Shown: positions 9,580-22,848 of the stretch, piece after piece
Position numbering within the stretch: the stretch's first letter is position 1
Layout of the letters: the number at the start of each line of letters is the position of its first letter
Assembly (NCBI RefSeq): GCF_000520495.1
Contig: NZ_KI914643.1
Span: 28,276-65,180 of the forward strand
DNA length: 36,905 nt
Direction: 5' to 3'
Source: Arthrobacter sp. H14
GTDB lineage: Bacteria > Actinomycetota > Actinomycetes > Actinomycetales > Micrococcaceae
Made by a program: the position numbers and the translations under genes
The notes under the pieces: generated by a model
Seen by the model: only the letters and a program-made list of their open reading frames with translations
Databases searched by the model: none
What the model was told of the DNA's origin: nothing

Positions 9580-9969
9580 TCACAGCATGTCCTCCATCAG
9601 CCGGGCCAGGATGTCATTCATGGCCAGCAGTCCGACCAGCTGGTTGCCCTCGACGACCACGAGCCGGTTGAGGTGGTATCGGCTCATCAGCGTCGCGGCT
9701 TGACGCAAGGACAACTCTGCGCCGACGGTGATCGCGGGGATCGTGGCCGCATCGTAGACATTGAGGAGATCCATATCTCCTTCTTCCGCGACTACGCTAT
9801 GCAAAAGTTCGCTGTAGGTCAGCAGCCCATAGGCATCATGTGGGTGCTGCCCTTCAACCACGAGGCTCTTAACCTGACGCTCCTTCATGGCGGATATCGC
9901 CTCGCGCAGGGTGCTGTAAGGGGAGATGGTGACGACCTTCGGAACCATGACATCTTTTACAGTGAGCAT
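9580..9969 (-). CDS. Twin CBS-domain protein
   Basis: This 129-residue protein consists of little more than two CBS domains: VKDVMVPKVVTISPYSTLRE ... VKSLVVE and IPAITVGAELSLRQAATLMS ... NRLVVVEGNQLVGLLAMNDI. CBS pairs usually bind adenosine nucleotides and gate a partner protein. GGAGGAAAGAG lies just before the ATG. It is the last gene of a three-gene operon behind the PII-like protein (33 bases) and the duplicated membrane protein, so its likely partner is that membrane protein. No enzymatic domain is attached. Confidence 0.88.
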   Translation of the reverse strand: MLTVKDVMVPKVVTISPYSTLREAISAMKERQVKSLVVEGQHPHDAYGLLTYSELLHSVVAEEGDMDLLNVYDAATIPAITVGAELSLRQAATLMSRYHLNRLVVVEGNQLVGLLAMNDILARLMEDML

Positions 9970-10002
9970 CTCTTTCCTCCTGGTAAGTGCTCCGGGCCAG
10001 CT

Positions 10003-10353
10003 TCAGTCGTCCTCGTGGCGCAGATAGTCTTCGAATTTGCCCACCTGGCGCAAGTCGATCCCGGTCAGATGTTCAATCGGAATAGCGAAGGCAAGACCCC
10101 GCGATTCGGTCCCCTTCACCAGCAGCGGGTGCAGCGCCTTGAGGATCGGAGCGGTTAGGTGCCGTCCGACCACCATCAGCAGCACGGACTGTGTTCCTTC
10201 AAAGGTCAGCCCGAGGAATGACTTTTTCGCTTCACCGCCGATGCCTTTGCCGACCAGAATGGTTACGCCAGTGGCGCCGGCCCGTTGGGCGTACTCAATC
10301 GCCTTGTCTTCATAGTCATCAGGGGCGATGACGACGATGGCGGTGAATTTCAC
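10003..10353 (-). CDS. PII-like signalling protein paired with DUF1538-like membrane protein
   Basis: The 116-residue product has the size and strand pattern of a ferredoxin-like PII-superfamily protein: it begins FTAIVVIAPDDYEDKAIEYA, has a central VGKGIGGEAKKSFLG where PII proteins carry the mobile T-loop, and then VLLMVVGRHLTAPILKAL. Canonical GlnB/GlnK signatures, including the uridylylated Tyr, are not evident, so it is not a classical nitrogen PII. The start is a GTG whose GTGA overlaps the stop of the upstream membrane-protein gene, giving tight coupling. Probable role: binds the membrane protein and changes its activity with metabolite or nucleotide state. That role is inference from known PII-transporter pairs such as GlnK-AmtB and SbtB-SbtA. 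Confidence 0.72.
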   Translation of the reverse strand: MKFTAIVVIAPDDYEDKAIEYAQRAGATGVTILVGKGIGGEAKKSFLGLTFEGTQSVLLMVVGRHLTAPILKALHPLLVKGTESRGLAFAIPIEHLTGIDLRQVGKFEDYLRHEDD

Positions 10354-11831
10354 GATGCTTCCTTCCGAAGCCGAGGAAATCTCTCCATCATGATGGCATA
10401 GATCAGAACGGAGATCACGGGAAAGATGGAGGCGAATGCGATCAATCCGAAACCGTCAATCAACGCATCGCGTCCGTCGATCGCAGTGGCCAGGCCGAGA
10501 CCGAGCGCGGTGACCAGCGGCACCGTGATTTCCGACGTCGTGACCCCGCCAAGATCGAAGGCCAGGGCGACGATGTACTTGGGCGCAAAGAACATCAGCA
10601 CGAGCGCTATCACGTAGGCGGCCATGATGAAGTAATGGAAGGGCCCACCAACAAGAATGCGGTACACGCCGAAGCCGATGCCGAGCGCCACCCCAACAGC
10701 GACAATGAGCCGGATGCCGACGGCACTGATCCTTCCGGGGGACGCCTCGTGAGCCTGTTCGCCGATCGCCAGCAGAGCAGGTTCGGCCATGGTGGTGGCA
10801 AAACCGATGAGCAGGGCGAAGAGCAGGATAAGGGCTGGCATGCCCTGCTCGATCAGCTGCTCCGCCATTACTCTTCCCAGCGGAAACAGCCCGAGCTTGA
10901 GCCCGACGACGAAGGCGTACAGTCCGACGACGACCATAATGAAACCGACGGCGACTCTCAACGGGTGGGACAATCGTCGTCGGAGAGCAACGTACTGGAA
11001 GAAGAGGACCACGGCCACCATGGGCAGAACCTCCCGGAGCGTCTCGGCCAAGCCAAGGATGGCACTGATCACCGAGAGCGGTGGATCTTCCCCGGCCTCC
11101 ACCCCCGGCACCGTGCCACCACCGCCAAAATTGTAAACCCAAATGCCGTACAGCTGGACGCCGATCATGGGAACCATGACGCAGAGCGCCACCAGACCAA
11201 AACCATCTGCCAGCTGGCTGCGGCCCCGGATGGAATTGGCCAGTCCAAGACCGATAGCGGCAATCAACGGAACACTGACGATGTTGGTTGTGACTCCGCC
11301 TGAATCGTAAGCAAGGCCAATGATCTCCTCGGGGGCGGCATAACTGAGCGCCAGCACCAGCCCATATCCGGCAATCAGCAGTTTGTGGACCGGCCAGCCC
11401 CGCAGCACCCGCATGATTCCCAGGACGAGGACCAGGCCGACCGATACGGCAATAACAAGGCGCAGGGTCATTGCGTTAATCCGCCCGTCGCTGACGAACT
11501 GCGCTTGCTGTGCGACGGCGATAACCGCGGGCTCCGCTATCGAGGCGGCGAAACCGATGGCGAACCCGAAGGGCAACAGCAATCCAAGTGCTCCGCGCCG
11601 GACGAACTGGTTGGCCAGGTTCTTGCCGACCGGAAAAACGCTCAGGTCCAGCCCCTGCAGAAACAGGGCAATGCCCAAGCCAACAATCAGCAGCCCCGCC
11701 ACAAGGTTCAGCGGATCGTCCGGCATCGAACGGAACACCAGCAGTTGGAAAATCACGACGACGGCCACGATGGGCAGGAGGTTCCTGAGCGCCTTGAGGA
11801 ATTCGCGTGCGAATTGGCTGAGGTGCTCCAT
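10350..11831 (-). CDS. Internally duplicated polytopic membrane protein (DUF1538-like), probable transporter
   Basis: This 493-residue protein is almost wholly hydrophobic and consists of two homologous halves offset by exactly 250 residues. AEP is at 99-101 and 349-351, GGVTT at 178-182 and 428-432, and DGFGL at 209-213 and 459-463. Each half has about six hydrophobic segments. I recognise it as DUF1538-like from memory; its substrate is not known to me. Conserved AEPA, D-x-GGVTT and VPL motifs embedded in the membrane would suit an ion or small-solute path. It leads an operon with a PII-like and a twin-CBS protein, an arrangement typical of regulated transporters. The ATG at 11831 follows GGGAGAGGACCC. 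Confidence 0.78.
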   Translation of the reverse strand: MEHLSQFAREFLKALRNLLPIVAVVVIFQLLVFRSMPDDPLNLVAGLLIVGLGIALFLQGLDLSVFPVGKNLANQFVRRGALGLLLPFGFAIGFAASIAEPAVIAVAQQAQFVSDGRINAMTLRLVIAVSVGLVLVLGIMRVLRGWPVHKLLIAGYGLVLALSYAAPEEIIGLAYDSGGVTTNIVSVPLIAAIGLGLANSIRGRSQLADGFGLVALCVMVPMIGVQLYGIWVYNFGGGGTVPGVEAGEDPPLSVISAILGLAETLREVLPMVAVVLFFQYVALRRRLSHPLRVAVGFIMVVVGLYAFVVGLKLGLFPLGRVMAEQLIEQGMPALILLFALLIGFATTMAEPALLAIGEQAHEASPGRISAVGIRLIVAVGVALGIGFGVYRILVGGPFHYFIMAAYVIALVLMFFAPKYIVALAFDLGGVTTSEITVPLVTALGLGLATAIDGRDALIDGFGLIAFASIFPVISVLIYAIMMERFPRLRKEAS

Positions 11832-11889
11832 TGGGTCCTCTCCCAGTGATGGCTGCGGGTACCTCGGTCTTCAATCTTCCCTTAAGCAG

Positions 11890-11922
11890 GCAATGCCCCT
11901 CCCATAATGGGAAGGGCACTGC
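11890..11922 (-). terminator. Hairpin downstream of pckG
   Basis: An imperfect stem of about 15 pairs (two mismatches) with a 3-4 base loop forms between GCAATGCCCCTCCCA and TGGGAAGGGCACTGC. It lies about 30 bases after the pckG stop on the minus strand. No clear T-run follows, so termination efficiency is uncertain. Confidence 0.5.
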
Positions 11923-11952
11923 ACACTTCAGGCGGTTTCGGCTGGGAAGGTC

Positions 11953-13833
11953 CTAGCTCGCGAACCGTTCCTTCAACTGCGCCAGCTGGTCGCGCAGACC
12001 ATCCGGCAGCGAGTCGCCAAAGCGCTCGTACCACTGCTCGATACCTTCAAGTTCGGGCCCCCACTCCTCCGGTTTGACCGCCACGGCTGCGTCGATCTGC
12101 TCCTGGCTGATCCCAAGCCCTTCGATGTCCAGCGAACCCGGTGCCGGCACGTAGCCGATCGGCGTCTCGGCCGCCTCTGCGGTTCCTTCGATCCGATCGA
12201 TCACCCACTTCAGCACCCGCGTGTTCTCGCTGAAGCCAGGCCACAGGAATCCGCCGTCGGCATCCCTGCGGAACCAGTTGACGAGGAAGATCTTCGGCAG
12301 CAGCTCCTGGTTGGCGGCTCCGCTGAGTTTGATCCAGTGCTTGAGGTAATCGCCGGCGTCATAACCGATGAAGGGCAGCATCGCCATCGGATCGCGGCGG
12401 ACGACACCGACCTGGCCGGAAGCTGCGGCGGTGGTTTCCGAGGACAATGTCGACCCCATGAAAATGCCGTTTGTCCAGTCACGCGCCTCGGTCACGAGCG
12501 GGACGGTGGTCTTGCGCCGGCCGCCGAACAGGATGGCCGAGATGGGAACACCATCGGGGTCGTTGTATTCCTCGGCGAGCATGTCGATCTGGTCGATCGG
12601 GGTGCAGAACCGGGAATTCGGGTGTGCTGCCGGGTGGTCCATTTCCGGCGTCCAGTCATCGCCCTGCCAGTCGATCAGGTGATCCGGGGTTTCCTTGGAC
12701 ATGCCCTCCCACCAGACACCGCCGTCGTCGGTCAATGCCACGTTGGTGAAGATGGAGTTGCCCTTCACGATGGCGCGCATCGCATTGGGATTGGTGCCCC
12801 AGCCGGTGCCCGGTGCGACACCAAAGAGGCCGGCCTCCGGGTTGATGGCACGGATTTCGCCGTTGTCGCCGAAACGCATCCAGGTGATGTCATCGCCAAG
12901 TGTTTCGACGTGCCATCCCTCAAGGGTCGGATCGAGCAGGGCCAGGTTGGTCTTGCCGCAGGCAGAGGGGAACGCCGCGGAGATGTAGTACGTCTTGTTC
13001 TCCGGGCTGGTTAACTTGAGGATCAGCATGTGCTCGGCGAGCCAGCCCTCATCGTGGGCCATTACGGAGGCGATGCGCAGCGCGTAGCATTTCTTGCCGA
13101 GCAGGGCATTACCGCCATAGCCGGAACCATAGGACCAGATGGAGCGCTCCTCGGGGAAGTGCACAATCCACTTGTCCTCATTGCACGGCCACTGGACGTC
13201 CTCCTCGCCGGGTTCAAGCGGAGCTCCGACCGAATGCAGGGCAGGAACGTAGAACGCGTCCAACTCCGTCATTCTGTTCAATACGTCAGTGCCGATACGG
13301 GCCATGATCCGCATTGACGCGACCACGTATGCACTGTCGGTGATTTCGACGCCGAATTTCGGATCCTTGGCATCGAGGTGGCCCATAACAAACGGGATCA
13401 CGTACATGGTCCGTCCGCGCATGGAACCATCGAACAAGCTGTTAAGCTTGATCTCCATCTCGGCAGGATCCATCCAGTTATTGGTGAAACCGGCGTCGTG
13501 CTTGTTCGCCGAGCAGATAAAGGTCTGCTCTTCGACCCTGGCAACGTCCTTGGGGTCGGAGAAGGCCGCAAACGAGTTGGGGAAGGTGTCCGGGTTCAGC
13601 CGGGTCAGTGTTCCGGCATCAACCAAATGGCCCGTAAGCCGCGCATACTCTTCTTCAGTACCGTTGACCCAGTAGATAGTCTCCGGCTTGGTCAATTGCG
13701 CAGTCTCGCGCACCCACTCAAGCAGCCCTGCATGAGTCGTAGGCGCATTATTGAGAGCATCTTGCACAGTCTGCGGTGTCGCAGTTGGCTCAGCGGAATC
13801 TTCCATCAGAAGTTGACGCGCAGCATCGCCCAT
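11953..13833 (-). CDS. pckG: Phosphoenolpyruvate carboxykinase (GTP)
   Basis: This 626-residue enzyme converts oxaloacetate plus GTP to PEP, the first step of gluconeogenesis and needed for growth on aromatic acids that enter at acetyl-CoA and succinyl-CoA. Clear GTP-type PEPCK signatures include the P-loop segment [23 protein letters not shown], and [12 protein letters not shown]. The chosen ATG has AAGGAAGGGAAGAG just upstream; an internal ATG nine codons later is an alternative. Length is normal for the family. The upstream gap carries a CRP/GlxR-like palindrome at 13982-13997, which suggests cAMP-responsive control. Confidence 0.97.
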
Positions 13834-14109: not shown

Positions 14110-14182
14110 GCGCCCGTAGCTCAACGGATAGAGCATCTGACTACGGATCAGAAGGTTGTAGGTTCGAATCCTGTCGGGCGCA
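14110..14182 (+). tRNA. tRNA-Arg (anticodon ACG)
   Basis: The 73-base cloverleaf has acceptor arms GCGCCCG and CGGGCGC, a D-arm AGCTCAACGGATAGAGC, an anticodon stem TCTGA/TCAGA with loop CTACGGA (anticodon ACG) and a T-arm with GGTTCGAATCC. The discriminator is A and CCA is not encoded. A hairpin follows within 10 bases. Confidence 0.96.
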
Positions 14183-22760: not shown

Positions 22761-22848
22761 GGTGACGTGTCCGAGCGGCCGAAGGTGCAACACTCGAAAT
22801 GTTGTTTGGTGAAAGCCAACGTGGGTTCAAATCCCACCGTCACCGCCA
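22761..22848 (+). tRNA. tRNA-Ser (anticodon CGA), CCA encoded
   Basis: The acceptor stem is GGTGACG/CGTCACC, the anticodon arm is CAACA-CTCGAAA-TGTTG (anticodon CGA), a long variable arm (TTTGGTGAAAGCCAA) marks a class II tRNA, and the T-arm is GTGGGTTCAAATCCCAC. CCA is encoded at 22846-22848. It is the last core gene before the accessory region. Confidence 0.96.

What the first reader, a model, noticed from the sequence alone, without database searches (positions are those of the whole stretch)
9580..11831. Three-gene operon: duplicated DUF1538-like membrane protein, PII-like protein, twin-CBS protein
Seen: the three genes are on one strand; the first two overlap by GTGA and the third follows after 33 bases. 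Known: PII proteins gate transporters by binding them, and CBS pairs sense adenine nucleotides. Inference: this is a transport system with two stacked energy/metabolite sensors for an unknown substrate. I know of no established function for the membrane family. It lies between benzoate genes and pckG, so organic acid or bicarbonate handling would make sense.
Basis: partly seen in the sequence, partly recalled or inferred. Interest (0 to 1): 0.65.

Follow-up and report, generated by a model that had tools for sequence, protein, structure and literature searches.

The report
PII-partnered cation/proton antiporter operon
A soil actinobacterium carries an operon for a salt- and pH-balancing cation/proton exchanger together with its own small PII-like and CBS sensor proteins; the exchanger gene is followed by such a PII-like gene in almost every bacterium checked, which suggests an unstudied switch for ion exchange.

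Summary
Three genes lie on the minus strand: a protein of two fused DUF1538 repeats (10350-11831), a PII-like protein (10003-10353, GTGA overlap) and a twin-CBS protein (9580-9969, 33-base gap).

The claim that the membrane family has no known function is outdated. A DUF1538 pair, UmpAB of Halomonas, is a measured Na+(Li+,K+)/H+ antiporter (PMC5484666); this protein is a UmpA-UmpB fusion that keeps the near-invariant acidic residues.

The small protein folds as PII but lacks the ATP-phosphate and uridylylation residues of nitrogen-type PII.

The linkage reaches far beyond close relatives: 126 of 128 testable DUF1538 loci in Actinomycetota, Pseudomonadota and Clostridia are followed by a PII-like gene, and in 296 Actinomycetota genomes both occur in exactly the same 18. 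The CBS gene is lineage-restricted; elsewhere a second PII gene or a fused double PII follows. In some Arthrobacter the operon lies between a KhtT-domain gene and nhaA.

Best reading: a cation/proton antiporter gated by a dedicated PII-like protein, with CBS as accessory adenylate sensor. Antiport rests on one tested homologue; gating, ligand and binding are inferred. The organic-acid/bicarbonate idea is not supported: pckG is a neighbour in only one related locus.

The parts
10350..11831 (-). Fused UmpA-UmpB-type DUF1538 membrane protein, 493 aa, two homologous repeats; candidate cation/proton antiporter
   Evidence: PF07556 x2, E 2.8e-129; NCBIfam UmpA 422 bits and UmpB 370 bits, below the curated cut-offs; AlphaFold2 all-helical model, pTM 0.80; E100/E350 99% and D176/D426 100% conserved over 246 distinct repeats
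10003..10353 (-). PII-like protein, 116 aa, GTG start overlapping the DUF1538 stop (GTGA)
   Evidence: PF00543 24.7 bits; AlphaFold2 model, all 50 listed Foldseek matches are PII or PII-like, Z about 10
9580..9969 (-). Stand-alone twin-CBS protein, 129 aa
   Evidence: PF00571 x2; closest solved chain CBS-CP12, E 4e-19; D119 of the second CBS motif invariant
11890..11922 (-). Strong hairpin between pckG and the operon, probably the pckG terminator
   Evidence: 15-bp stem in the predicted fold of 11832-11955; z -3.99, 0 of 200 shuffles as stable; function inferred

Best explanation
The operon encodes a cation/proton antiporter of the UmpAB (DUF1538) kind made as one fused chain, plus its dedicated regulator: a PII-like protein that docks on the cytoplasmic side and changes the exchange rate according to a bound small molecule, most likely an adenine nucleotide. 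The CBS-pair protein is an accessory adenylate sensor acting on the same complex. The two acidic residues per repeat (AEP and D-x-GGVTT motifs) are the likely cation/proton site. Shown here: gene structure, fold class of the PII-like protein, conserved residues, near-universal linkage. Resting on one published homologue: Na+(Li+,K+)/H+ antiport. Inferred: physical binding, gating, direction of the effect, ligand, and the role of the CBS protein.
For: UmpAB antiport measured in vesicles (PMC5484666). The window protein fits UmpA and UmpB models half by half and keeps the near-invariant E and D. PII-like gene within 700 bases downstream in 126/128 testable loci; presence/absence 18/18 against 0/278 in Actinomycetota and 119/123 against 5/226 in Pseudomonadota. 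PII fold. nhaA directly follows the operon in six Arthrobacter loci and a KhtT N-domain gene precedes it in eight. DUF1538 listed among pH-predictive families (PMC13255231). Translational overlap of DUF1538 and PII.
Against: Only one DUF1538 system has been assayed; the window protein is below NCBI's UmpA/UmpB cut-offs. UmpAB conferred tolerance in E. coli without a PII partner, so PII is at most a modulator. No complex was modelled. Linkage shows functional association, not binding. A few Pseudomonadota carry orphan PII-like genes of this subfamily without DUF1538. The canonical nucleotide clamp is lost, so the ligand is a guess.
Confidence: 0.6

Rival explanations
1. The membrane protein carries a different substrate (bicarbonate or an organic acid), the PII-like protein acting as SbtB does on SbtA, with pckG/benzoate metabolism as the context.
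For: SbtB is among the best fold matches of the PII-like protein; pckG and a LysR/catB-like pair are neighbours in the window.
Against: pckG is next to the operon only in L025 and the benzoate-side genes in none of 26 relatives; the one tested DUF1538 pair exchanges Na+, Li+ and K+ for H+; antiporter-related neighbours in Arthrobacter. SbtB ties with GlnK, TTHA0516 and CPII in the fold comparison.
Confidence: 0.1
2. c-di-AMP is the ligand: the PII-like (as PstA/DarA) or the CBS protein (as CbpB/DarB) switches the antiporter in the manner of other osmolyte and K+ transport systems.
For: All five Micrococcaceae hosts tested, the window genome included, have a diadenylate cyclase domain; c-di-AMP controls K+ transport in Gram-positives (established knowledge).
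Against: Seven gammaproteobacterial hosts of DUF1538-PII loci have no DAC domain while 11 of 14 control genomes ring, so it cannot be the common ligand.
Confidence: 0.12
3. The PII-like protein is an ordinary nitrogen/2-oxoglutarate sensor that happens to be encoded beside a transporter.
For: The window genome and its congener hold no other PF00543 gene. Orphan relatives in Gammaproteobacteria lie beside argB, whose product is a known PII target in phototrophs.
Against: Genomes of genus g20 (G020, G717) have both a canonical GlnK and this gene. Y51, K90, R101 and R103 are lost in 38/38 members and R38/Q39 replaced. The linkage to DUF1538 across phyla would be unexplained.
Confidence: 0.08

Closest known systems
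UmpAB, two-component Na+(Li+,K+)/H+ antiporter of Halomonas zhaodongensis (DUF1538, PF07556)
   Same: Same family, two homologous halves, same conserved acidic residues, same half order
   Different: Here both halves are one chain; the PII-like and CBS partners are not mentioned in the UmpAB paper sections read (the clone held only two other ORFs)
SbtB-SbtA (PII-like regulator of a Na+/bicarbonate transporter)
   Same: Small PII-like protein dedicated to one secondary transporter; SbtB among the best fold matches (Z 10.4, tied with others)
   Different: Unrelated transporter family by sequence; substrate; SbtB's C-terminal redox loop not seen in this sequence
GlnK-AmtB
   Same: PII protein encoded beside its transporter; PII fold
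   Different: Lacks Y51 and the K90/R101/R103 phosphate clamp, T-loop shorter; the partner is not Amt
TTHA0516 of Thermus thermophilus (PDB 2cz4), uncharacterised PII-like protein
   Same: Best sequence-profile match of the Micrococcaceae/Gamma subfamily in the PDB (E 0.0004) and a top fold match (Z 10.4)
   Different: Sequence match covers residues 6-76 only; its gene context was not examined here
CBS-CP12 (PDB 5nmu) CBS pair
   Same: Closest solved CBS pair by sequence (E 4e-19)
   Different: No CP12 tail here

Membership tests
DUF1538 / UmpAB antiporter | PF07556 domain in two homologous copies | tested here: met
   Two stretches, E 2.8e-129
DUF1538 / UmpAB antiporter | Score above the NCBIfam UmpA and UmpB equivalog cut-offs | tested here: not met
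   422 against 490 and 370 against 500 bits; the models describe separate subunits, so it is filed as DUF1538 family, not as UmpA/UmpB equivalog
DUF1538 / UmpAB antiporter | Conserved intramembrane acidic residues | tested here: met
   E100/E350 99%, D176/D426 100% over 246 repeats
DUF1538 / UmpAB antiporter | Na+(Li+,K+)/H+ exchange | not testable with these tools
   Measured only for Halomonas UmpAB (PMC5484666)
PII superfamily | Ferredoxin-like PII fold with T-loop between strands 2 and 3 | tested here: met
   AlphaFold2 model pLDDT 75, pTM 0.65 (T-loop low confidence); 175 Foldseek matches at E<=0.001, top 50 all PII
Canonical nitrogen PII (GlnB/GlnK) | Y51 uridylylation site and K90/R101/R103 ATP clamp | tested here: not met
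   Absent in 38/38 family members including the window protein
SbtB | Gene neighbour of sbtA and regulation of bicarbonate uptake | tested here: not met
   Neighbour is DUF1538, not SbtA; the fold match is tied with other PII types
c-di-AMP receptors (PstA/DarA, CbpB/DarB) | c-di-AMP made in the hosts | tested here: inconclusive
   DAC domain in 5/5 Micrococcaceae hosts, 0/7 gammaproteobacterial hosts
CBS-pair (Bateman) adenylate sensors | Two CBS domains with the Asp of the G-h-h-T/S-x-x-D motif in at least one | tested here: met
   PF00571 x2; D119 invariant in A3, while the first CBS has E54 or N and A116 replaces T in Micrococcaceae; ligand binding itself not testable

The most novel reading that the evidence does not exclude
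DUF1538 antiporters are a widespread further kind of PII-gated transporter, beside AmtB-GlnK and SbtA-SbtB: a dedicated PII-like subfamily with a shortened T-loop and no canonical ATP clamp ties cytoplasmic pH/Na+/K+ exchange to a metabolic signal, with an exchangeable second sensor (CBS pair, second PII, or fused double PII).
Probability: 0.5. Interest if true: 0.75.

Novelty: new variant of a known kind. Interest (0 to 1): 0.6.

Why it matters
Control of bacterial Na+/K+/H+ exchange by a dedicated PII-like protein was not found in the held literature: no paper contains both DUF1538 and 'P-II family nitrogen regulator'. DUF1538 occurs in about a third of the sampled Pseudomonadota genomes (123 of 349). 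If the PII-like protein gates it, a large set of genes now annotated as nitrogen regulators concerns ion and pH homeostasis instead. It also gives a ready partner gene for the published UmpAB system, so the idea can be tested directly.

Tried and rejected
Fold of the membrane protein: no PDB match at E<=0.001; best Foldseek row was VcINDY with TM about 0.2; VIA-align best Z 5.9, below its own noise level for helical models, so no fold family is claimed. Promoter and terminator scan: at chance level. Rfam: no riboswitch at the window operon or at 20 other loci, only tRNAs and an unrelated glmS. pckG/benzoate neighbourhood as functional clue: rejected, not conserved. c-di-AMP as universal ligand: rejected. 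Canonical nitrogen PII: rejected on residues. Mirror-tree correlation of DUF1538 and PII (r 0.69, 123 loci): not used, since it cannot be separated from shared ancestry, and the DUF1538 tree did not recover Micrococcaceae as one group (perhaps because of the frameshifted copy L031). K58 of PII could not be placed because the alignment has a gap in the T-loop. A complex of PII with the membrane protein could not be predicted with the tools.

Full report
OBSERVATION. The three ORFs are at the stated places on the minus strand: DUF1538 x2 10350-11831, PII-like 10003-10353 with the GTGA overlap, CBS pair 9580-9969 after 33 bases. Pfam gives PF07556 twice (E 2.8e-129), PF00543 (24.7 bits, just under the 25-bit cut-off) and PF00571 twice. 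Upstream, 121 bases separate the operon from pckG. They contain a 15-bp hairpin (11890-11922; z -3.99), probably the pckG terminator, so the operon is likely its own transcription unit (inference).

THE MEMBRANE PROTEIN. One exists: umpA and umpB of Halomonas zhaodongensis, a DUF1538 pair, restore salt and alkali tolerance to E. coli KNabc, co-precipitate, and show Na+(Li+,K+)/H+ antiport in everted vesicles, optimum pH 9 (PMC5484666). The window protein is both halves in one chain: its first half fits the UmpA model (422 bits) and its second the UmpB model (370 bits), each below the curated cut-off. Across 246 distinct repeats the AEP glutamate (E100/E350) is conserved in 99% and the D-x-GGVTT aspartate (D176/D426) in 100%. 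In the AlphaFold2 model (pTM 0.80) E100 and E350 lie in short breaks between helices, and D176/D426 near the end of a short helix before the GGVTT loop, as expected of an ion site (inference). No solved structure resembles it convincingly. Independent hints: DUF1538 is in a published list of Pfam families that help to predict growth pH, together with Mrp subunits and Trk/Kdp (PMC13255231), and cable-bacteria work treats UmpAB and NhaA as salinity adaptations (PMC12093952).

THE PII-LIKE PROTEIN. AlphaFold2 gives a PII fold (the T-loop is of low confidence). Every listed Foldseek match is PII or PII-like, and the structural aligner puts SbtB, TTHA0516, GlnK and CPII together at Z near 10, tied, so the fold does not say which is nearest. 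A profile of 38 diverse members matches solved PII proteins at E 1.8e-10, and all 38 match PF00543. It is therefore a PII superfamily member but not a GlnB/GlnK. In the window genome and its congener it is the only PF00543 protein; genomes of another Micrococcaceae genus (G020, G717) have it besides a canonical GlnK.

CO-OCCURRENCE. The related-loci scan returned 26 loci, nearly all from Micrococcaceae and Gammaproteobacteria, all with a PII-like gene downstream. Family searches found DUF1538 in 18 of 296 Actinomycetota (over cut-off) and 123 of 349 Pseudomonadota. The neighbourhoods fetched (top-scoring, mid, and deliberately the weakest-scoring genomes) plus seven plasmid loci give 126 of 128 testable loci with the PII-like gene within 700 bases on the same strand (a few genomes were fetched twice). 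Presence/absence agrees: in Actinomycetota the PII-like profile reaches 113 bits or more in exactly the 18 DUF1538 genomes, and nowhere else exceeds 42.5 (Fisher 4e-29); in Pseudomonadota 119/123 against 5/226 at E<1e-15 (counts made by hand from the two tables; Fisher 2e-81). Caveats: genomes are related, so the p-values overstate independence, and the profile includes sequences from some of these loci; the absence side does not suffer from that. The CBS gene is lineage-limited: 21 of 26 in the first set, 25 of 31 top-scoring Pseudomonadota, 2 of 18 Actinomycetota (both Micrococcaceae), 0 of 7 plasmids. Where it is missing, a second PII gene often follows (20 of 26 weak-scoring Pseudomonadota have two), or, in Clostridia, one protein of about 223 aa with two PII-like halves. 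Some Actinomycetota have a single DUF1538 unit plus PII, or A-B-PII-B-PII. So the PII partner is the constant feature and the CBS partner is optional.

NEIGHBOURS. In Arthrobacter relatives nhaA (TIGR00773, above cut-off) directly follows the CBS gene in six loci and lies inverted nearby in a seventh; a 90-aa gene matching the N-domain of KhtT (PDB 7agw, E 1.3e-7) directly precedes DUF1538 in eight. These are close relatives, so they count as one or two events, but both neighbours belong to cation/proton exchange. pckG is next to the operon only in L025.

LIGAND. Seven gammaproteobacterial host genomes have no diadenylate cyclase domain; the five Micrococcaceae hosts tested have one each. c-di-AMP thus cannot be the common ligand, though it stays possible in the window organism. 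The CBS protein is closest to CBS-CP12 among solved structures and keeps the second-motif Asp (D119), which fits adenine-nucleotide binding (inference).

MECHANISM. By analogy with AmtB-GlnK and SbtA-SbtB, the PII-like protein, presumably a trimer, is proposed to dock on the antiporter's cytoplasmic face and change its rate with a bound adenine nucleotide; the CBS pair would add a second input. That UmpAB worked in E. coli without its PII gene says that PII modulates rather than builds the exchanger. Binding, direction and ligand are untested. Confidence: about 0.7 for cation/H+ exchange, about 0.6 for PII gating.

ORIGIN. The nearest DUF1538 repeats outside Micrococcaceae are the fused gammaproteobacterial ones (tree distance 0.72-0.82, the rest 1.3 or more), and in the PII tree Micrococcaceae sit beside Arsukibacterium (without support for that joint node), while other Actinomycetota carry the distant, unfused type. 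This suggests horizontal transfer between the two groups; it was not tested formally.

VERDICT. New variant of a known kind (PII-partnered transporter), with a family-wide linkage that was not found described in the held literature (most subscription journals and all preprints are missing there).

Noticed in passing
L192:3766-4125, L199:3778-4107, L200:3847-4191: Orphan PII-like genes of the same subfamily, without DUF1538 beside them, lie next to a TIGR04211 SH3 gene and argB (acetylglutamate kinase, a classical PII target) in gammaproteobacterial genomes; L187-L189 look alike but argB was not confirmed there.
   Followed up: partly
L142:5487-6155, L144:5325-5993, L145:5185-5859: In Clostridia the partner is one chain of about 223 aa with two PII-like halves, the second a clear P-II match and the first more diverged.
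   Followed up: partly
window genome G000 and congener G001: No canonical GlnB/GlnK found; the operon's PII-like gene is the only PF00543 match. G000 is 95.7% complete, so absence is probable but not certain.
   Followed up: partly
L007, L009, L013, L014, L018, L028, L029, L030, upstream of DUF1538: A 90-aa stand-alone homologue of the KhtT N-domain without Pfam or NCBIfam match, next to a divergent two-component system.
   Followed up: partly
window 14110-14182 and 22761-22845, + strand: Two tRNA genes by Rfam.
   Followed up: no
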